Shown: positions 2,447 through 32,770 of the stretch, piece after piece
How the letters are laid out: every line of letters starts with the position of its first letter
Numbering within the stretch: position 1 is the stretch's first letter
IMG/VR virus record: IMGVR_UViG_3300050343_000051
Coordinates: 1-33,549 of that record
Direction: 5' to 3' (one strand)
Source of the DNA: a virus
Length of the DNA: 33,549 nt
The notes under the pieces: generated by a model
What the model was told of the DNA's origin: nothing
The model's input: only the letters and a program-made list of their open reading frames with translations
Databases searched by the model: none
Program-made: the position numbers and the translations under genes

Positions 2447-4761
2447 TGGCTAGACAAGATGACGAACGCGCAATGGCAGAAGCTCTTAGCGGTGTAGGAG
2501 TTAATATTCCTAGCGCTGAAGACACGGTTGTTCAATTTGTTCAAAGCAATCCAAACGCCTCCTTGGAGGACATTGCTTCATTGATTCAGTCAACTGGCGC
2601 GAATCTAGGCTCTGTAGCTAACACTCTTGGTGTTCCTATGGCTGAGGCTCAAAGAGCTTTTGATACGGCTATAGCGTCTCAAAGTGCTGCTCAGACTGCC
2701 GCTAACGAAGCTCAGGCAGCAGCAACAACAGCAGCCAAAGAAGAAGTGGTTGATACGGTTGTAGCTGAGAAAACTGGTCTTGATAACGTCATTGATTATA
2801 TCAATTCAGGTCAAGCAACTACCGATCAAGATGTTTACCGTGAAATGACTAAGCAAGGTATCGGTGTTGAGCAAGTGGCTCAATCACTAGGCGTACCAAT
2901 GGACGAGGCTACAACTCGTTATACCCGCGCTCAAGAGATGGTAGAAATAGAAAACATTGTTGCTGGCGGTTTAGAGCAAGCAAAGAAAGATTTTCCTAAC
3001 GGCATTCCAGATAACCTATTAAAGCGCTACGCCTCTGAGACTAATCAGTCTATAGAGCAGATAGCCACTAACATGGACAACTTTGGTGTCTCTGTTGATG
3101 ACATGGCTCGCGCTACTGGCATTCCTTTGGCTGAGGTTCAGTCTGCTTACAATAGAGCAAAAGACGGCGCTGTAACTGGCGGCACAGGCGGTACAGGAAA
3201 CACAGTTGCAGGAAACGAAGTAGCTGGTGGAACTGGAGCAGGAGTCAGCTCTGGAACAGGCTCTGTAGCTTCTTCAACGGCTGTAGGAGGACGCGCAGGA
3301 GCAGGTGGTCAAACTGGCTTGGCTGGAGCGGAAAGAGCGCTAGCAGGCGGTGTGACGGCTGCTGCACAGGCTATTGAGTCAGGAGCTGGTCAAGCTAGAG
3401 CAGATCTTCTTGGTGGCACTCAGATTGCTCGTCAGGACTTAACTCAAGGCGCTCAAGAAGCTGGCGGTTTAATTCAGTCAGGCACTGGATTGGGATTAGA
3501 AGCTCTTGGCACGGGTCTTGGTGCTGCAAGACGAGATATTATGGGAGGCGCACAAGCTGGACTTGGCGCGTTGTACCAAGGTCTTGGCGGCGCTAGAACA
3601 GATCTTCAAGCAGCTCAGCAGGCAGCTAGTCAACAATACGGAGCAGGTCTTGGAGATATCACAGCAAGCTCGTGATACTTGCGTCTCAGCAAGTTGGTCA
3701 AGCCTTTGGTCAAGCTGGTCAGATGTTTGATCCTTATCGTCAGGCAGGCGCTGCGGCAACACAACAACAGGCGGCGTTATCAGGCGCTTTAGGCCAAGAT
3801 GCTTTCAATCAGGCTTTCCAAACAAGTCCTCAGCAGCAATTCTTGCGAGAGCAAGGTGAGCGAGCGGCGTTACGCACAGCGGCTGCAAGAGGTGGTGTAG
3901 GTGGCGGTAACGTCATGAAAGAGCTGTCTAGGTTTAATACTGGACTTAGCGTCTCAAGATTTACAGAATCAAATTGCCAACCTTCAGCATCTTTAGGCGC
4001 TCAAGGTCTTGGCGCTAGTGGCAGCGCAGCGCAATTTGCTGCTCAAGGCGGTGCTGCTCAAGGCAGATTTGCAAACGCAAGCAGCTCAGCAACTTGCAGC
4101 ACAACGCGCTCAAATAGCGCAGTCTCAGTTAGGCACAGGTTCGCAGCTTGCAGGACTAGGCACACTGGCAGGACAGCAAGGACTCAGCACTCTCACAGGC
4201 GCTGGGCAACAGCTAGGAAATCTTGGCGTTACTGGCGGCACTTTGGGAATGCAAACTCTCACAGGTGCGGGTTCTCAATTAGCTGACATAGCCAGTGGCA
4301 GGTCTTTAGCGCAATCTCAACTAGCGTCTCAAGCAGGCCGTGGCCTTGGTGACATAAGCATGACCGGAGGAATGACTGTTGGTGATTACCTCTATGGAAC
4401 TGGTGGCGCTCTGGCTCAAAACAGAATGCAAGCAGGCCGTGACATTGCTGGCAACATAACCAACCAGATAAATGCTTTGGCTCAGTACCAAGGCGATCAA
4501 GGTATTGGTATGTCTGATCTAATCGGTCAGCAGGCAAATATACTAGCAGGCATCCAAGGCGGTGCAGGTGCTGGAATGTCTGGCATGATTGGTGGCACTG
4601 CTGGTCAGCTTGCAGGAATAGCTACAGGAACTGGTGCTGCTTACAATCCAACTGGACTAGGCCAGACAAGTCAGGTTAGTGGAATCCTTAACAGAGCAAC
4701 AGGATCTGACGGCAACATGGCTGGCTCTGTTATAAACAGGCTTCCTGTTCTTGGTGGTTAG
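2446..4761 (+). CDS. Large Gly/Ala/Gln-rich putative ejection or internal virion protein (frameshifted)
   Basis: Corrected length is about 770 aa, read in three frames: 2446 to about 3660, about 3672 to 4075, then to TAA 4761. Residues 1-240 hold three imperfect repeats of a short helical unit, each ending in a GVPMAEAQ-, GVPMDEAT- or GIPLAEVQ-like motif followed by a hydrophobic/Arg helix (about 2540-2690, 2790-2940 and 2990-3165). After a Gly/Thr-rich linker the rest is low-complexity, with repeated GAGxxLAGLG, GxxQLGNLG and AQSQLASQAG units, resembling long amphipathic helices of internal virion proteins. Slips occur near 3660-3675 and 4070-4090. It lies in the late virion block in the place of the P22 ejection genes (7, 20, 16). 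The function is inferred from position and composition only. Confidence 0.6.
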
Positions 4762-4783
4762 CGAATAATTTATAGGTATAAAA

Positions 4784-6100
4784 ATGGCTGAAATGACTGA
4801 AAAAGAAAGGCTTGATAAAGAAAGATTTCAAGCAATGATGGCTGGTCTTCCTGAAAGAAACCAACAGCCGACTATGCGACAGCCTTCAATAAGCTCTGGA
4901 ATGAATCAGGCTTTTAATGTTCCGACTCCAAAACGAACAATTAAAGATAGATTTCAGGACTATGGCGCTGCTGTTTCTTCTGACATGACAGGAAAACAAG
5001 TAGTCTCTCCATATCAGCGTAGGCAGCAACAGCTACTTCAAGGCACTATAATGGACGCTCAGGCTATCCAGCAGGCTATACAAGGCGAGAATATGCCTAA
5101 AGCTGTAGATGTTCTTGTTGATCGCATGAATGTTCTTGAGAAATTAGGAGAAGATACCTCTGACACAAAGATGCTCAGAGATGCTCTTGTAGGCGGCAGG
5201 CCAGACATAGTTATGGGAGAGATCAACACTTTCCTAAGTTCTTTGCCTAAGCAAACCATTGATCCAGAGATGATTACAGGTCAAGGCCAGATGATTACTC
5301 AAAGATTGGGTGGCGCTCCTACTGCTCAGACTGTTGGTGGTTATCAGCCTGCCGAAAGTTATCGTGCTATGACGGATGAGGAAAGAACTTCATTCGGAAT
5401 ACCTACAGGAGTTCCTTCTAGGATGAATGTTCAAACAGGAAAACCTGAAACAATGGGTTCTGGCGGGATAAACATTAACACTGCTCCAGATACTCCTGCG
5501 TTTAGCGACCAAATGCGACAGCGAACTATGGAAGGCTTTATTCCAACCAGAGAGTCTTTAAACGAGCAAAGAATGGCTATTACTACTTTTGGAAAAGTAG
5601 AGCAAATGGCAAATTCTTTAAACGCTCAAGATATGAGTGGAGCTGAAAAGGTACTTAGAAGTATGTTCCCAGATTTAAGCATATCTTTAGCTGATCCAAA
5701 TGGATTCTTGGCAGTAGCAGACTCACTAAGAACTCAAGTTGCTCCACAAATGAGAGTGGCAGGATCTGGTAGTACCTCTGACATAGAATTTAAAGCATAC
5801 TTAGGCTCATTGCCAAGTCTTCTTCAGTCAGTGGAAGGAAGGCAAGTTCTTGTAGAATCTTTCAGACCAGCAGAGGAAAGAGCAAAACAAAAGATAGAGC
5901 TTGCTCGCAAGTTTGCAATAGGTCAAATGACATTTCAGGAATACTTAGATCAAGATTTAGCGCTTGACGAAGGAAGCCTTTACAGCGATGCACAGAAACG
6001 AAAGATAAATAGAATCGCAGGCCAAGTTATTTTTGATTTGGGTACACCTGTATTCACTCCTCCATTAGATGGCTCTATAACTCCAGCGGGTGCAGAATAG
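4784..6100 (+). CDS. Putative virion/ejection protein of unknown family
   Basis: A 438-residue protein with an intact frame, starting at ATG 4784 after a 22-base gap that has only a weak ribosome site (AGG in TATAGGTATAAAA). It is not recognised. The first 80 residues are charged and Gln/Met/Pro-rich (EKERLDKERFQAMMAGLPER) and look disordered. Residues about 85-165 are predicted helical with acidic patches. A Pro/Gly/Thr-rich middle follows at about 165-245, then a helical C-terminal half with KVLRSMFPDLSISLADPNG. There is no signal peptide or membrane segment. It lies between two candidate ejection proteins in the same direction, so a role in the virion or in DNA delivery (the gp20 slot) is the best guess, made from location alone. 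Confidence 0.6.
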   Translation: MAEMTEKERLDKERFQAMMAGLPERNQQPTMRQPSISSGMNQAFNVPTPKRTIKDRFQDYGAAVSSDMTGKQVVSPYQRRQQQLLQGTIMDAQAIQQAIQGENMPKAVDVLVDRMNVLEKLGEDTSDTKMLRDALVGGRPDIVMGEINTFLSSLPKQTIDPEMITGQGQMITQRLGGAPTAQTVGGYQPAESYRAMTDEERTSFGIPTGVPSRMNVQTGKPETMGSGGININTAPDTPAFSDQMRQRTMEGFIPTRESLNEQRMAITTFGKVEQMANSLNAQDMSGAEKVLRSMFPDLSISLADPNGFLAVADSLRTQVAPQMRVAGSGSTSDIEFKAYLGSLPSLLQSVEGRQVLVESFRPAEERAKQKIELARKFAIGQMTFQEYLDQDLALDEGSLYSDAQKRKINRIAGQVIFDLGTPVFTPPLDGSITPAGAE

Positions 6101-25247: not shown

Positions 25248-26677
25248 TGCCCAAGATGCAGATACCCAAGAAGATGCTTCCGTTCTTGCAGCCTAAGCGC
25301 TACAAGATTTGCATCGGAGGCCGTGGCTCAGGCAAGAGCATGACTATGGGTGATCTGTGTCTACTGGCAGCTCAGACGCAAGGCATCAAGACTCTCTGCG
25401 CTCGTGAGTTCCAAGCCAGCATTGACGACTCCATTCATACGCTGCTGTGTGCTGAGATAGAACGGCTAGAGTTAAAAGGCTTTGAGATACAGCGTAACGA
25501 GATCCGCTACGGCGGCGAGACTGCGTTCAAGTATATCGGGTTAGCTCGCTCACCAGAAAGTGTAAAATCGTATCACGGCTTCAGCAGGGTATTTGTGGAC
25601 GAGGCTCAGACAATATCCGAGGCCAGCCTCAAGGCTCTTACTCCTACGCTCAGAACCGCAGGCTCAGAGATCTGGATGGCAGCTAACCCAAGGTCTGCCG
25701 CTGATCCATTCTTCCTACGATTCGTCAAGCCGTTTGAGAAAGAACTACGGCGTGACGGTGTGTACGAGGACGAGCATCACACGATTGTTTGGATGAACTA
25801 CAATGACAATCCTGCGTTCCCAGAAGTCTTAGAGCAAGAGCGAGCCTATGACCAAGCGCATATGTCTCCTTCTCTGTACTCTCACGTTTGGGAAGGCGAG
25901 ACGTATGATGAGAACGAAGACTCAATCATTCCAGTGCCGTGGTTCTTGTCGGCAGTAGATGCACACATAAAGCTAGGTTGGAAGGCTGAAGGCGCTATCA
26001 TTGCGTCTCACGACCCATCGGACGAAGGCGGTGACAGCAAAGGCTTTGTACTCAGGCACGGCAACGTGATCCTAGATGTCTGCGAGATGGTGACAGGCGA
26101 TGCTGGCGAAGGCATGGATTGGGCGCTAGACAAGGCGTTGAAAGCTAACGCTGACCACTTCCTATGGGATGCGGACGGCTTAGGTGTCTCTCTCAAGCGT
26201 CAGGTAGATCAGGCGCTGGCTGGCAAGAACGGTATCACTTACTCAATGTTCAAAGGCTCAGAGGCAGCAGAAGACCCAGAGATGCCGTACACCAGCGGCG
26301 GCACTGAGCGCAACAAGACTAACCGTGAGACCTTTAGAAACAAGCGAGCGCAGTTCTGGTGGCGGCTAAGAGATAGGTTCGAGGCTACCTACCGCGCAGT
26401 TGAGAAAGGCGAGTATGTGAACCCAGAGGATATGATCAGTCTGTCCTCTGAGATAGCGGTGCTGGATCAGCTCAGAGCTGAGGTCTGCCGCATACCGCTG
26501 AAACGCAACAATGCTGGTAAGATACAGATATTAAGCAAAGCGGAGATGGCTAAGCCTCCGTATCGGTTACCGAGTCCCAACATGGGTGATGCGCTGATGA
26601 TGTCGCTGCACTCACCTAAAGCACTAAACAAACAGAAAGTTGTCCTCAACTTCAGCGGCTGGAAGCATCATGGATAA
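25247..26677 (+). CDS. Terminase large subunit
   Basis: A 476-residue packaging motor. The ATPase part has GGRGSGKS (Walker A, residues 24-31), VFVDEAQ (Walker B with catalytic Glu, 115-121) and the coupling motif MAANPR (144-149). The C-terminal RNase H-fold nuclease shows SHDPSDEG (first acidic ligand), WDADGLG (second) and PNMGDALMMSL (third Asp). It translocates DNA into the procapsid and cuts concatemers. The sequence type is that of PBSX/P22-like headful terminases, which would give circularly permuted ends, in line with the contig break lying elsewhere in the genome. The gene overlaps the portal start by eight bases. Confidence 0.95.
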   Translation: MPKMQIPKKMLPFLQPKRYKICIGGRGSGKSMTMGDLCLLAAQTQGIKTLCAREFQASIDDSIHTLLCAEIERLELKGFEIQRNEIRYGGETAFKYIGLARSPESVKSYHGFSRVFVDEAQTISEASLKALTPTLRTAGSEIWMAANPRSAADPFFLRFVKPFEKELRRDGVYEDEHHTIVWMNYNDNPAFPEVLEQERAYDQAHMSPSLYSHVWEGETYDENEDSIIPVPWFLSAVDAHIKLGWKAEGAIIASHDPSDEGGDSKGFVLRHGNVILDVCEMVTGDAGEGMDWALDKALKANADHFLWDADGLGVSLKRQVDQALAGKNGITYSMFKGSEAAEDPEMPYTSGGTERNKTNRETFRNKRAQFWWRLRDRFEATYRAVEKGEYVNPEDMISLSSEIAVLDQLRAEVCRIPLKRNNAGKIQILSKAEMAKPPYRLPSPNMGDALMMSLHSPKALNKQKVVLNFSGWKHHG

Positions 26678-28874
26678 AAACGATTACGAATACGAGAAAG
26701 ACTCCAAGAAAGAGTATGGCGAAGATGTCTATGACTCTACTAAGTATGATGATCACGAATATGTTTCAAACCTTCTAGCTGCATCTCAGGAAGCAGACCA
26801 AGACCTGCGCGACAATGCTCGTGAGGCTGCGCTGTTCGTTGATAAGCGTGACGGTCAATGGGAGCCGTACTGGTACAACAATGCTGCTGAGAGCAAGTCT
26901 CCACGCTACAGCTTTGACATGGTGAACCCGATCATTGATCAGGTTTGTTCCGAGATTGACCAAGCATCGTTTGATGTCTCTGTCTCGCCTGCTGGCGGCA
27001 ACAGCACCAAGGACATAGCAAACACCTACTCAGGCATTGTTAGAAACATTGAGTCTATGTCTGATGCCAGTGAGGTCTACAACCACGCTGCTCGCAACAT
27101 GGTGACCACTGGCTTTGGCGCTTGGCGTGTTGTGCATAAGTATGTGAGTCAGGACAGCTTTGACCAAGACCTGTTCATTGAGCCGATTGGCAACTCCATA
27201 GACCGTGTATGGTTTGATCCTGCGGCAGAGAAGCAAGACAAGTCGGACAGCCGTTATTGCTTTGTCCTTCACGCGATTGGCAAGGATGAGTATGAGAGGC
27301 GCTGGCCTGAAGCATCTGGTGAATCAGTTGATGAAGGCCGTGATGGCGAGGCTTACTATGACAAGGCTGAGGTCGTAGTCATTGGTGAGCTGCTGTACTG
27401 CGAAGAAGAAGAGCGCGAGCTAGTCATGATGTCCAATGGGCAGGTTCATGAGGCTGATGATGACTTTAAGAAGATAGCTGATGAGCTTGAATCCATTGGC
27501 GTGACAGAAGTCCGCAGGCGCAAGCGTGTCAAGAAGTCGGTCTGTTCACGGTTATTTGACGCTAGTGATTGGCTTGAAGAGAAGAAAGAAACAGTCTTCA
27601 ACATGATTCCGGTTGTGCCTATCTACGCTAACTACAAGATCTTTGAGAACAAGACGATCTTCTGGGGACTCGTAGAGAAGCTGATGGACTCACAGCGAGT
27701 GCTGAACTACTCAGTCAGCCGTGAGGTAGCCGAGACTAGCCTTGCGCCACGAACCAAGTATTGGATGACAATGAGTCAGGCTGCTGGTCATGAGTCTTCA
27801 CTACAGACCCTGAACACTAACCACGATCCGGTTCAGTTCTTCAACGTAGATCCTGAGTTCCCGCAAGTACCTCAGCAGCAAGGCGGCGCACAGATCAACC
27901 CAGCGCTACGCACAATGTCTGAAGCTATGCGAGGCATGATTACTTACGCCTCTGGGATGTTCTCCAGCAACATGGGTGACAATCCACAGAACCAATCTGG
28001 CGTGGCAATCAATGCGCTACAGAACAAAGGCGACAACTCTACGATCAAATACTTCAAAGCCTTGGAGTATGGCATCCGTGCTACTGGTCGCATCTTGGTA
28101 GCCGCTATCCCAGAGATCTACGACTCAGCGCGTACTGTAAGGCTGCTGAAGGAAGACAACACCTATGACGTTGCTGACATCAACCAGAAGGTCATAGACC
28201 AGCAGACAGGCGATGTGGTGGTTGTGAACGATCTGTCGGTCGGTAACTATGACGTACAGGTCAAGGCTGGTGCGAGCTTCAAGAACCGCCAACAGGAGAC
28301 CATTGAGACAATCATTGAGATTGCCAAGGTCGATCCAAGCATCCTCCAGATCGCTGGTGATGTCCTGCTGGACAACGTAGCCACTGCCTCAGCTCAGCAA
28401 ATCTCTGACCGCAAACGCGCACAGATGATTGCGGCTGGCCTGATTCCTCAAGACGCAGATGACTCGAAGAAGAGTTGGCGGCAGGCGCAGCAGCAGCAAG
28501 GCGAGCCACAGCAAGATCCCAACATGGTCTTGGCGCAGGCTGAGCAGATGAAGGCTCAGGCCGAGATGCTGCGAGCGCAGATAGAGCAGGCCAAGCTACA
28601 GAACGAGCAGATGAAGCTACAGCTAGAAGCTCAGAAGCTCCAGACGCAGATGCAGGGCGACCAGGCTGAAAGCCAGATTGACTTCTTCAATGCCGAGACT
28701 AAGCGCATGGACACTCAGATCAAGGCTCAGCAGGCAGGTGCTACGATTGACAGGACAAGCGCTCAGGCAGTAGGCGAGCAGCTCAACAACCAAGAGAAGA
28801 TGGCTGACATCAGCGACAGGCAGCGCGCCGAGGCTCGAGACGTATGCGAGCCGAAGCTCAACGCCGAGCCATGA
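26670..28874 (+). CDS. Portal protein, P22 gp1-like
   Basis: A 734-residue dodecameric portal (P22 gp1 is 725 aa). The start ATG 26670 (MDKNDYEYEKDSKKEYGEDV) is preferred over an upstream TTG in terL. Recognisable regions are DKRDGQWEPYWYNNAAESKS, RYSFDMVNPIIDQVCSEIDQ, FGAWRVVHKYVSQDSFDQDL and MFSSNMGDNPQNQSGVAINA. The C-terminal 150 residues are a Gln/Ala-rich coiled coil (EQMKAQAEMLRAQIEQAKLQ), corresponding to the long barrel of P22 portal. The frame is intact until the last few dozen codons; the final residues (RAEARDVCEPKLNAEP) may reflect an indel. It forms the DNA channel at the capsid vertex. Confidence 0.93.
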   Translation: MDKNDYEYEKDSKKEYGEDVYDSTKYDDHEYVSNLLAASQEADQDLRDNAREAALFVDKRDGQWEPYWYNNAAESKSPRYSFDMVNPIIDQVCSEIDQASFDVSVSPAGGNSTKDIANTYSGIVRNIESMSDASEVYNHAARNMVTTGFGAWRVVHKYVSQDSFDQDLFIEPIGNSIDRVWFDPAAEKQDKSDSRYCFVLHAIGKDEYERRWPEASGESVDEGRDGEAYYDKAEVVVIGELLYCEEEERELVMMSNGQVHEADDDFKKIADELESIGVTEVRRRKRVKKSVCSRLFDASDWLEEKKETVFNMIPVVPIYANYKIFENKTIFWGLVEKLMDSQRVLNYSVSREVAETSLAPRTKYWMTMSQAAGHESSLQTLNTNHDPVQFFNVDPEFPQVPQQQGGAQINPALRTMSEAMRGMITYASGMFSSNMGDNPQNQSGVAINALQNKGDNSTIKYFKALEYGIRATGRILVAAIPEIYDSARTVRLLKEDNTYDVADINQKVIDQQTGDVVVVNDLSVGNYDVQVKAGASFKNRQQETIETIIEIAKVDPSILQIAGDVLLDNVATASAQQISDRKRAQMIAAGLIPQDADDSKKSWRQAQQQQGEPQQDPNMVLAQAEQMKAQAEMLRAQIEQAKLQNEQMKLQLEAQKLQTQMQGDQAESQIDFFNAETKRMDTQIKAQQAGATIDRTSAQAVGEQLNNQEKMADISDRQRAEARDVCEPKLNAEP

Positions 28875-28910: not shown

Positions 28911-30920
28911 ATGGCTGAACCAAGGTATAGGTACGGAGGAGACAGCGCCATAGGTGCGCTGCTCCTGCCTGAGCGCCGAGAGATCCTGCAAGAAGAGCAG
29001 AACCAGTTCATCGGCTATGATGACCGTGGTCAGGCCATAGTCCAGACGATCTACCTGCCCAGTACGGAGAGTCTGAAGTAGACTTCTCATACAGTCCTAT
29101 AGTCAGAGGCGCTAAAGCTACTGGCTCTTTCCTCAGTGACATCTTCTTTGGTGATGCTAACGAGCAGTCAGAAGCTGCTGGCAGAGCTGTCAGCGCAGTC
29201 CGTGGAGTGGTAGGAGGCTCTAGGAGATTACGCCTCTGATCAATATCAGGCAGGCATGGCTGGCGGTACTACCTATGATCCTGAGACTCGGCAGATAACT
29301 GAGTTTGATCCTGCTTTAGTTATGGGAGGAGGCTCTAGCGGTGGAGGCTCAGCGTTAGCCTCTGGCTTTAGAAGGTCAGGCGGCAACAGGACAGAACAAA
29401 GCGCTAGGATGCAGAGAGCGCAAGACCTTGGTTTTGATACTAGCCAGTCCTTTGTATCACTCGACCAATTCTTCGTTTGACTCTTTTGAAGTACCGGAAG
29501 ACGGTTTTTTAAAGTATGGGAAAGGCGTTTATACCACGCCAAATGCACAATATTCCGACAGATATATTAGACAAAACAGAGACTTAGAGTCAGCGTACAA
29601 GGAAGGCGCTAACGTCATGCCTTTGTATGCGCGAGGCAGGATTGGAACAGAGGAAGATTGGGAGGCAGCAAGGCAAGAAATGTTAGCTGAAGGCGTAAAT
29701 CCATCAGGCTACAATCCTATGCAAGAAGAAATAAAAAGGCGGCTACAGGAAAAAGGTTTTGATGGCCTTAATATGTTCGGCAATGAAGTTATTATTTACG
29801 ATCCCAAAAACCTTCGCTCTATTAACGCAGAGTTTGATCCTGCAATGTCTGACAGCGATATGCTTTTATACTCAGGCGGCGGCAGGCAAGGCACAGCAAT
29901 AGCTGGCGGCTCGGCGCTGCGCGAGTCTTTTCGTATCGGAGATGAAGGCTTTGATCCAAGGTTTGACAGCCGAGCGAGAGAACAACAGCGCATATTGGAT
30001 ACAGAGCTAACGTATGAAGGTTCGCCTATAGTGCGTCCGGAAGTAAGCATTTTTGACTATGAAGGCAAGCCATTCAGAATAACTATGGCAGACAGGACAA
30101 AAGCTGGATCGCGCCTATCACTGGAGTCGAAGGTGTTGATTATGACCTGCCCGTAGAGCTGCAAGGCGGCCAAGACTTCATGTTTGCCAATCCAACAGGC
30201 AGAGAAGGCCAGGTCTGGGCGCAGGATAGAGGAGCAACATCGGCTTTCTTGAATTCATTTATGGGATTGGATGGCAAGCCAATAGCTGATGAGGTGCTTG
30301 ATGCTGCCTTACCGGATGGCTCCGAGTGGTGGAGACTTCTCTACTATGACCGGAGAGGTAATGGTTACTCACGCTAGGAATGCCGTGTCAAAAAGAGCCA
30401 AAGCGGCAGGCTGACACGACTATTAAAGAATTCTATCCAGCTTGGAAAGGAATAGATAATCCTGAAAGCATAGACCAAATTAGAGAAATGACAGGCGATC
30501 CTAGAAAATCTTTATTACAGGTTATGGACAGGGATTTAAGAGACGAAGGCGGTCTTGGGTATAGGCCAAGCTAGGCTCGCTGTAAGTGATCGCGCTCAAT
30601 ACAACGCTCCTGACTTTAATCTGCAAAATGTTGGTGTTGCTAATCCGTATGGCGATTCAAGGTTTGAAGTGTCTGGGCATCGCACCTATGGTCAAGGATT
30701 GGCTGGCAGGCCTGAAGGCATTTTGAGAGAGCAAGACATAAATGTTTTTGAGTTAATGCCCGATCTTGTAAGCGCCAGAGGATTTGACAGCGTTGATTCT
30801 TTGCTTAGAGCTGATCCAGCTACCTTGGCAAAAGAGCAATACACGTTGCGCCGAGGCACTAGAGGCGGCGTAATAACTGAAGAGATGCTGAGAGATATAG
30901 AGGCTCGTAGAGCAAATTAA
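28911..30920 (+). CDS. ADP-ribosyltransferase-like polyvalent protein between portal and scaffold (frameshifted)
   Basis: Corrected length is about 670 aa from ATG 28911 (MAEPRYRYGGDSAIGALLLP). A short frame 28871-28918 (MRYMSDSEIARMQNG) precedes it and may be its true N-terminus. The first 170 residues include a Gly/Ala/Ser-rich segment. From about 29450 an ART-like domain appears: LYHSTNSSFDSFEV, KYGKGVYTTPNAQYSDRYI and NEVIIYDPKNLRSINAEFDP. The YHxT, GxGVYxT and (E)xxxxDPxxLRSxxAxFDP order is that of ART domains of phage polyvalent and MuF-type proteins. The last 290 residues (KPFRITMADRTKAG, ELQGGQDFMFANP, KEFYPAWKGIDN) form a second unrecognised domain. About seven indels break the frame (near 29060, 29215, 29445, 30105, 30335, 30395 and 30550). 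Such enzymes may be virion-carried and modify host targets. Confidence 0.65.
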
Positions 30921-31123
30921 AAAAAGTTTATGGAAGCGTAATAGTGGTTCAATTCCACAGGCGATAATCTATAGGAGCCTTGCTAGGTAGCCGCTTCCGC
31001 CATATTTTAAGAAAAGTATTGCTTTTTACCAAATTGTGGTATATTTGACCACTAGCGCACTCCACGCTTTCTTGGAGGCACGGAACGTCACCGTTTATTT
31101 GACGGCATTACAGTAGGTATAAG
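30921..31123 (+). promoter_or_regulatory. Leader region upstream of scaffold and coat
   Basis: A 203-base non-coding gap. Besides the tRNA-like element it contains nested inverted repeats (TACCA-AATTG-TGGTA at 31027-31041, and GTGGT-ATATTTG-ACCAC over 31036-31052), TATATT at 31040-31045 with TTGCTT 15 bases upstream as a possible promoter, and CGTCA...TGACG (31086-31104) as a hairpin before the scaffold start. A dedicated promoter for the highly expressed scaffold-coat pair would make sense, but the hexamers and spacing are not strong. Confidence 0.3.
30932..31002 (+). other. tRNA-like element with 7-bp acceptor-type stem and GCCA end
   Basis: GGAAGCG (30932-30938) pairs perfectly with CGCTTCC (30992-30998), followed by G and CCA exactly as in a tRNA 3' end. 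Inside, GTGG-TTCAATT-CCAC (30944-30958) is a stem with a T-loop-like TTCAA sequence, but it lies near the 5' side rather than before the 3' acceptor strand. AGGC...GCCT (30959-30980) and GCTA-GG-TAGC (30982-30991) are further small pairings. The total, 71 bases including CCA, is a few bases short for a tRNA, and no normal anticodon arm is visible. It may be an indel-damaged tRNA gene, a tRNA-mimicking element or coincidence. Confidence 0.3.
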
Positions 31124-31503
31124 ATGCAACCAGACGATATGGTCGATGAGACTCAAGATATTGAGTTTGAAGACATAGAGGATGTAGATCAGGAAACTGA
31201 TTCCGATTCATCAGCGGATACTGACGAAGGTCAGGAGAAATCTACTAGACCTGTTTTTAACGAAGAACAGCAGAAGGCTTTTGACAAGGCTATGGCTGAG
31301 AAGACTTGGAAGGCGCGAGAAGCAGAGCGTCAGGCCGAGGACTATCGCAAGCGCCTTGCAGAGCTTGAGGCTAGGCTTCCCAAAGAACAGCCGCCTGAAG
31401 TGCCGAAAGTGCCTGACTTCTATAGTCTTTCAGATAGAGAGATACAGGAGCAGCTCCGACAGCGTGATGAGGCGATTGCCAAACGAGCTGAGTTTGATGC
31501 ATC
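31124..31503 (+). CDS. Scaffolding protein, truncated and fused toward coat
   Basis: ATG 31124 starts a very acidic N-terminus (ETQDIEFEDIEDVDQETDSD), then a charged coiled coil (AEKTWKAREAERQAEDYRKR) and PKVPDFYSLSDREIQEQLRQ. These are typical of podovirus scaffolding proteins, which direct coat assembly and leave the procapsid. The sequence reaches FDA at about 31500 and then runs, with no stop and no spacer, into the ATG of the coat gene. P22 scaffold is 303 aa and only about 126 residues are present here. The C-terminal coat-binding helix-turn-helix, the stop and the coat ribosome site are all missing, so an internal deletion or a misassembly is likely. Confidence 0.7.
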
Positions 31504-32770
31504 ATGGCTAACAATCTCAATAGTAACGTCACACGGAAAGTCGCTCGCGTCTTTCTAGATGCCTTTGAAGCATCACGAGTAGTAACAAAGACAGTCAACA
31601 CTCAGCTTCTAAGCGGCAAGTTCAACCCTTCAAGCGGTTCTAATGTAGACTTCAAGCGTCCGCATGACTACAACTCTATCCGTACTTCTGGCGGTGACAT
31701 CAGCGGTTCTGATAAGTCGGACATCATTGCAGGCAAGGCAACTGGTACAGTTCAGGACTACTTCACAGCGGCCACTGAGTGGGGCAACGTGGAAGAGGCT
31801 CTTGAGCTAGACCAACTTGACCAGATCCTTGAGCCTATGGCCCGTCGCATTGTGACTGACCTGGAGCTTAGACCTTGGTCGCGTACATGCAAGAACGCAG
31901 CACTTGAACTATGGTGATCGCGGCACTGCTGTTGATGCTTGGTCAGACGTAGCTGGTGCTGGTGCACTGATGGATTCTGTCGGCGTTCCAATGAGCAGAC
32001 GAGAAGTATTACCTCATGAACCCATTCACTACTACTGCGCTGTCTTCAGCTCAGAACGGTTGAATGCGTCTGACGGCCTTGTTCGTACAGCATGGGAAAA
32101 AGCGCAAATCAGCCAGAACTTTGGTGGCATGATGGCGCTTACTTCTAACGCTCTAAGCAGCTACACTTCAGGTTCAACTACTGATCGTGCAGGTACTTTG
32201 AATGGTGCTCCTAACGCCACTTATGTTGCAGCTAAGGACACTATGCAGCAGACTCTTGTTCTGAACGGTCTGGGTACTGGTACTATCAAAGCTGGCGACA
32301 GGTAACTATTGCAGGCGTTAATCGTCTCAACGTAGCTACTCGTGAAGCGATCCTTGACAGCGCTGGCGCACAAGTTCCTTGGACAGGCACTGTACTCGAA
32401 GATGTGACTATCTCTGGCAACGCTGCGACTATTACTGTCTCAGGTGCGGCTATCTACGAGGCTAACGGTCAGTACAACAACGTAGACGCAGCTCCTGCTT
32501 CTGGCGCGGTTGTGACTATCCTTGGTGCTGCTTCAACTCTGTACCAGCCTAATATGTTCTACACCAAGCAAGCGTTTGGTCTCGGAACTGTTAAGCTACC
32601 TAAGCTCTACTCTACAGACACTATTGCTACTACTAGCGATGGTATGTCAATCCGAGTATCTAAGTACGCAGACGGTGACGCGAACACGCAAAAGATTCGT
32701 TTCGATCTCTCTGCCGGCGTACGCGACCTTCAACCCGCTGTTTGCGGGTCAAGGGCTTTACGGAAAGTAA
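31504..32770 (+). CDS. Major coat protein, P22 gp5-like (frameshifted)
   Basis: Reconstructed length is about 422 aa (P22 gp5 is 430 aa), HK97 fold with a telokin-like insertion expected. Pieces in order are MANNLNSNVTRKVARVFLDA, FNPSSGSNVDFKRPHDYNSI, AATEWGNVEEALELDQLDQI, NYGDRGTAVDAWSDVAGAGA, YYLMNPFTTTALSSAQNG, LVLNGLGTGTIKAGD, VTIAGVNRLNVATREAILDS and LPAYATFNPLFAGQGLYGK, ending TAA 32768-32770. Slips lie near 31880, about 32000 and 32063 (a compensating pair), 32298 and about 32710. No ribosome site precedes ATG 31504 because of the upstream junction. It is the capsid shell protein and is followed by an intrinsic terminator. Confidence 0.85.

What the first reader, a model, noticed from the sequence alone, without database searches (positions are those of the whole stretch)
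28911..30920. ADP-ribosyltransferase-like polyvalent gene inserted between portal and scaffold
In P22 portal is followed directly by scaffold. Here a 2-kb gene carries YHST, YGKGVYTT and NEVIIYDPKNLRSINAEFDP, the pattern of ART domains in phage polyvalent and MuF-type proteins, plus a second unassigned C-terminal domain. Position in the head operon suggests packaging into the virion and injection with DNA, giving an effector delivered at infection.
Basis: partly seen in the sequence, partly recalled or inferred. Interest (0 to 1): 0.6.

Follow-up and report, generated by a model that had tools for sequence, protein, structure and literature searches.

The report
Swappable ADP-ribosyltransferase cargo in phage head operon
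In an uncultured marine P22-like phage, a gene wedged between two head-building genes carries a probable ADP-ribosyltransferase enzyme fused to a new, widespread phage protein domain; sister phages carry different enzymes in the same place, so it looks like an exchangeable payload that may be packed into the virus and injected into the bacterium.

Summary
One 2-kb gene (28911-30920) lies between a P22-type portal and the scaffold. In the window indels split it over several frames; relatives at 96-99% identity encode an intact 666-aa protein. The indels fall in the error-rich last ~5 kb of the contig and look like sequence errors. The ART fold itself could not be modelled. The 'unassigned' C-terminal part is a discrete domain: confident AlphaFold model (pLDDT 91), no PDB, Pfam, PHROG or NCBIfam match, 451 IMG/VR stretches, usually beside terminase or portal genes where checked. 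Beyond the finding: the portal-scaffold interval is a polymorphic slot. In near relatives the flanking DNA is about 90-93% identical while the ART cassette is replaced by another ART-like cassette (42% identity), by ART plus methyltransferase, or is missing. In a coat-anchored survey 41 of 43 loci had a slot gene, in 27 sequence clusters, including SAM-lyase and LPD23 polyvalent domains. Packaging and injection remain inferred. I file it as a new variant of known phage polyvalent effector proteins; it is not a MuF toxin.

The parts
26640..28874 (+). P22-type portal gene, upstream border of the slot (its last codons are also disturbed in the window)
   Evidence: Pfam P22_portal E 1.3e-145; in L002 the portal and slot ORFs overlap by 8 bp
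28911..30920 (+). slot gene: polyvalent-type protein (666 aa in intact relatives), split over several frames in the window
   Evidence: intact at 96-99% identity in L002, L003, L004; about 8 indel events against L002 in the slot gene
28911..29436 (+). N-terminal region (~175 aa): shared by cassette-swapped relatives, low-confidence model, no family match
29437..29853 (+). ADP-ribosyltransferase cassette, ART-PolyVal type (residues 175-313 of L002)
   Evidence: Pfam PF18760; hhalign 99.3%; alignment A8
29458..29460 (+). His of motif I (LYHST), predicted NAD-binding
   Evidence: invariant in A7 and A8; position read
29530..29532 (+). Tyr of motif II (GKGVYTT)
   Evidence: nearly invariant in A8
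29785..29787 (+). predicted catalytic Glu of motif III (NEVIIYDP)
   Evidence: nearly invariant in A7 and A8
29890..30917 (+). C-domain: new conserved phage domain (~340 aa), model pLDDT 91.4
   Evidence: A4/A6; model; no PDB match; 17 BFVD matches; no Pfam/PHROG/NCBIfam family
30926..31001 (+). ~75-90-nt cloverleaf-like element just after the slot gene, present in some relatives and absent in others
31124..31558 (+). scaffold gene, downstream border of the slot; lacks about 433 bp against L002 and runs into the coat gene

Best explanation
The gene encodes a polyvalent-type effector carried by an uncultured, probably marine, P22-like podovirus. A conserved N-terminal region and a conserved C-terminal domain frame an exchangeable enzyme cassette, here an H-Y-E ADP-ribosyltransferase. 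Most likely it is translated with the portal, enters the prohead through its portal/terminase-linked C-domain (and/or N-region), is ejected with the DNA, and ADP-ribosylates a host macromolecule (RNA polymerase, translation or defence factors, or nucleic acid) in the first minutes of infection. Shown by computation: gene order, ART family membership, new domain, cassette exchange, polymorphic slot. Inferred: NAD-dependent activity, packaging, injection, target.
For: ART-PolyVal. Low dN/dS of the ART cassette (0.05, L002/L006) and C-domain (0.04), so both are under purifying selection. Cassette exchange: L002 vs L009 is ~93% identical before, 42% inside, ~90% after; L010 lacks the cassette. Slot survey anchored on coat: 41 of 43 loci occupied; pairs with coat >92% average 0.95 coat and 0.13 slot identity. 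Other occupants: LPD23 polyvalent domain, SAM lyase, methyltransferase, DUF3990/ART. C-domain next to Terminase_3, Terminase_6 and P22 portal genes in distant phages. Published precedent: ARTs in polyvalent proteins and near terminase-portal genes, predicted to be head-packaged (PMC5512222, PMC9503650); T4 Alt is packaged and injected (cited there).
Against: No virion proteomics for any member. The ART fold was not confirmed (model pLDDT 39). Nearest isolates by portal lack the gene, and slots can be empty (L223, L229), so it is dispensable. A late structural position does not prove packaging. L002 itself scores below Pfam's cut-off.
Confidence: 0.6

Rival explanations
1. The ART is made late in infection and acts inside the producing cell (host shut-off, superinfection exclusion or anti-defence) without being packaged; the slot is simply a tolerated insertion point in the late operon.
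For: Slot genes are dispensable (two empty slots) and variable; no proteomics; inserted genes can be expressed anywhere in a late operon.
Against: The C-domain stays beside terminase or portal genes in divergent phages with different terminase families, and it is present without ART in most members, which suggests a virion-linked role rather than a random insertion.
Confidence: 0.25
2. The protein is mainly a structural or assembly factor (portal or scaffold accessory); the ART-like cassette is catalytically dead or only binds.
For: The C-domain is the most widespread part and often occurs without an enzyme cassette; a fold relative in Flavobacterium phage elemoC is named 'structural protein', basis of that name unknown.
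Against: His and Glu stay conserved across divergent cassettes; cassettes are exchanged for other enzyme-like ones; slots can be empty, so it is not needed for assembly.
Confidence: 0.1
3. A polymorphic toxin of the MuF kind, used by a prophage-bearing host against rival bacteria.
For: Same place (after the portal), variable enzymatic cassettes, ARTs among MuF toxins (PMC5576092, PMC9503650).
Against: No MuF domain; the variable part is central, not C-terminal; no immunity-gene ORF in the 114-204 nt before the scaffold in most relatives; no integrase in the contig; no C-domain relative confirmed in 84,980 prokaryote genomes by the pattern scan.
Confidence: 0.03
4. The window copy is a true pseudogene, decaying in this phage.
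For: Several frameshifts within the gene.
Against: The portal end, coat and scaffold, essential genes, are broken too, and mismatches and indels against L002 climb only in the last ~5 kb of the contig: contig-end error.
Confidence: 0.05

Closest known systems
ART-PolyVal (Pfam PF18760), ADP-ribosyltransferase of phage polyvalent proteins
   Same: Same profile, same three motifs (YH-T, G-GVY, E-DP), same multidomain setting
   Different: Window copy is a divergent member below the cut-off; embedded between an N-region and a new C-domain in a P22-like podovirus
Phage polyvalent proteins (Iyer et al. 2017, PMC5512222)
   Same: Multidomain, encoded among head genes, mosaic effector domains including ART and LPD domains; architectural mosaicism was described there for jhp1044-like proteins
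   Different: Medium size (about 300-1100 aa), fixed slot between portal and scaffold, a C-domain that no library held here contains
MuF polymorphic toxins (Jamet et al. 2017, PMC5576092)
   Same: Gene next to the portal with variable enzymatic parts
   Different: No MuF domain, no immunity gene seen, no integrase in the contig, cassette central
T4 Alt
   Same: Phage ART proposed to ride in the head and act at injection
   Different: No Pfam match to Alt-type families; different phage type; packaging not shown here

Membership tests
ART-PolyVal (PF18760) | Profile match over the curated cut-off | tested here: met
   Close relatives L120 31.3, L123 32.1, L006 31.2 (equal to cut-off); L002 and window themselves 19-22 bits, below it
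ART-PolyVal (PF18760) | H-Y-E type motifs in order | tested here: met
   A8 with confirmed members L050 and L137; hhalign 99.3%
ART-PolyVal (PF18760) | ART fold with NAD pocket | tested here: inconclusive
   AlphaFold of N+ART pLDDT 39.4, alignment of 16 rows
ART-PolyVal (PF18760) | NAD+-dependent transferase activity | not testable with these tools
   needs enzymology
Phage polyvalent proteins | Several effector or associated domains in one polypeptide | tested here: met
   ART + C-domain; ART + methyltransferase + C-domain in L020; LPD23 and SAM lyase in slot relatives
Phage polyvalent proteins | Encoded next to virion or packaging genes | tested here: met
Phage polyvalent proteins | Packaged and injected | not testable with these tools
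   no virion proteomics held for any member
MuF polymorphic toxins | N-terminal MuF domain | tested here: not met
   no MuF match at E<=1 in full-length members
MuF polymorphic toxins | Temperate phage, toxin C-terminal, immunity gene | tested here: not met
   cassette central; 114-204 nt intergenic in most relatives; no integrase in the contig, which may be a fragment

The most novel reading that the evidence does not exclude
The C-domain is a previously undescribed phage packaging/ejection carrier module with a fold not represented in the PDB, and the portal-scaffold interval of these P22-like phages is a dedicated payload bay in which injected effectors (ARTs, SAM lyase, methyltransferase, unknown ones) are exchanged by recombination at the flanks.
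Probability: 0.4. Interest if true: 0.78.

Novelty: new variant of a known kind. Interest (0 to 1): 0.57.

Why it matters
Head-packaged phage effectors are mostly known from T4-like and large phages; NAD/ADP-ribose components were reported in only 18% of podoviruses, against most myoviruses (PMC9503650). Here is a short-tailed, P22-like group in which one small fixed interval carries a different probable effector in almost every relative. It offers a catalogue of candidate injected anti-host enzymes at a known address, and a new, confidently modelled domain common in aquatic phages that may act as the carrier. If the domain targets proteins into heads, it could be tested directly in a P22-type laboratory system.

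Tried and rejected
MuF membership (no profile match). Pseudogene reading (errors limited to the contig end, essential genes also broken). AlphaFold of N+ART: failed, so not used for a fold search. PDB sequence search with the ART profile: only weak hits, one of them to the PARP-like domain of ZAP (4x52, E 0.68), not counted. PDB sequence search with the C-domain: nothing. PHROGs and NCBIfam: nothing useful. Genome scan for the C-domain: none. Genome scan for the coat: one gammaproteobacterial MAG contig, probably a binned phage; weak host hint. The second ART-like cassette (L008 type) is only weakly linked to ART (hhalign 15%), so it is called ART-like. Literature search for elemoC proteomics found none. 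ARAGORN and Rfam on the cloverleaf-like element: nothing. Promoter/terminator scan around the gene: no more sites than in shuffles.

Full report
WHAT IS THERE. The window is an IMG/VR virus record of 33,549 bases. Between a P22-type portal (Pfam PF16510, E 1.3e-145) and the scaffold gene lies one gene, 28911-30920, which in the window is broken into segments in three frames. Three records at 96-99% identity (L002, L003, L004) carry it as a single 666-aa ORF; its start lies inside the last 8 bp of the portal ORF. Against L002 the window is free of mismatches over terL and the first part of the portal gene; mismatches and indels start in the portal gene and grow towards the contig end, the scaffold lacks about 433 bp, and the coat gene is also broken. 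I read the frameshifts as contig-end sequence error, not as gene decay.

THE ART PART. The segment with LYHST, GKGVYTT and NEVIIYDPKNLRS matches Pfam ART-PolyVal at E 4e-4 (21.6 bits, cut-off 31.2). Relatives of the same cassette reach or pass the cut-off (L006 31.2, L120 31.3, L123 32.1 bits), and the more distant L137 scores E 2.5e-12. A profile of four window-type cassettes against three other members (L050, 72.8 bits to Pfam; L137, 48.2 bits; L139, not scored separately against Pfam) gives 99.3% probability over 126 columns. The AlphaFold model of N+ART failed (pLDDT 39), so the fold itself is not shown.

THE C-DOMAIN. The rest, about 340 aa, is a separate conserved family (A4, A6). A scan of IMG/VR found 451 stretches that encode it; a pattern scan of 84,980 prokaryote genomes confirmed none. 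It matches nothing convincing in Pfam, PHROGs or NCBIfam. Its AlphaFold model is confident (pLDDT 91.4, pTM 0.89); Foldseek finds no PDB structure (best E 0.46) but 17 phage proteins in BFVD with E <= 6e-5, followed by a sharp drop. It occurs mostly at the C-terminus, sometimes in the middle or at the N-terminus of larger proteins, and often without ART. In distant phages its gene lies beside Terminase_3, Terminase_6 or P22-portal genes: seven of ten neighbours tested matched such a family.

CASSETTE EXCHANGE. Relatives share the N-region and C-domain but differ between them. L002 against L009 is ~93% identical in DNA up to about 4300, 42-45% across 4427-4850 and ~90% afterwards. L009-type proteins carry another cassette with HGT and GxGFYG motifs, only weakly linked to ART. 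L020 carries a third ART-like cassette plus a methyltransferase domain. L010 has no cassette (526 aa). L006 ends in ART and lacks the C-domain. dN/dS is 0.05 for the ART cassette (L002/L006) and 0.04 for the C-domain.

THE SLOT. To avoid choosing loci by the gene itself, I sampled the phage group by its coat protein (best 80 of 428 kept). In 43 loci both portal and scaffold were visible; 41 had a slot gene and two had an empty interval of 223 and 302 nt. Seventeen of the 41 contain the C-domain and about 16 match an ART profile, some partially. The 41 slot proteins form 27 clusters at 80% identity against one cluster for coat; among pairs with coat identity above 92% the mean slot identity is 0.13. 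Other occupants carry LPD23 (a Pfam large-polyvalent-protein domain), a SAM lyase domain, DUF3293, or DUF3990/ART. SAM lyases are known from phage T3 as anti-restriction enzymes (my own knowledge, not looked up here).

HOW IT PROBABLY WORKS. Iyer and colleagues described ARTs as the commonest modifying enzymes of polyvalent proteins and noted ART genes near terminase and portal genes, predicted to be head-packaged (PMC5512222, PMC9503650). The same logic applies here: a gene overlapping the portal gene, beside packaging genes, with a conserved carrier-like domain and exchangeable enzymes. I therefore favour a head-packaged, injected effector that modifies a host target early in infection. Packaging, injection, catalysis and target are inference.

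WHAT IT IS NOT. It has no MuF domain, its variable part is not C-terminal, most relatives have no room for an immunity gene before the scaffold, and no integrase was found in the contig. Isolates with the nearest portals, Pseudoalteromonas phage H6/1 and Vibrio phage 234P9, lack the gene.

NOVELTY. Polyvalent ARTs near head genes are known. The fixed, highly polymorphic portal-scaffold slot in P22-like phages and the widespread C-domain without PDB, Pfam or PHROG match are new as far as the libraries and papers searched here show.

Noticed in passing
window 30926-31001; L003, L004, L008, L010, L012, L014, L141, L159, L160, L163: A short element right after the slot gene, present or absent between near relatives and kept even where the slot gene differs. 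It folds into a cloverleaf with outer stem GGAAGCG/CGCTTCC and a tRNA T-arm-like hairpin GTGG-TTCRAWT-CCAC, but ARAGORN and Rfam do not recognise it and the folding z-score is only about -1.
   Followed up: partly
window 31124-31917: The scaffold ORF lacks about 433 bp relative to L002 and runs into the coat start; with the many indels after about 28840 this marks poor sequence at the contig end.
   Followed up: yes
L245:2065-5364: The slot protein of this relative (1099 aa) carries a Pfam S-adenosylmethionine lyase match (E 9.6e-7) plus the C-domain: a candidate anti-restriction payload.
   Followed up: no
L020:4945-7836: 963-aa slot protein with an ART-like cassette, a methyltransferase-like domain (E 2.9e-4) and the C-domain.
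   Followed up: no
L183:888-2582, L186:3839-5563, L230:3358-5352: Slot proteins with the LPD23 large-polyvalent-protein domain and no ART or C-domain match, about 500 aa of unassigned sequence each.
   Followed up: no
L249: A 49.6-kb contig in a gammaproteobacterial MAG holds a coat 77% identical to this phage group and an occupied slot with a weak C-domain match (E 1e-11): a hint at gammaproteobacterial hosts, or a binned phage.
   Followed up: partly
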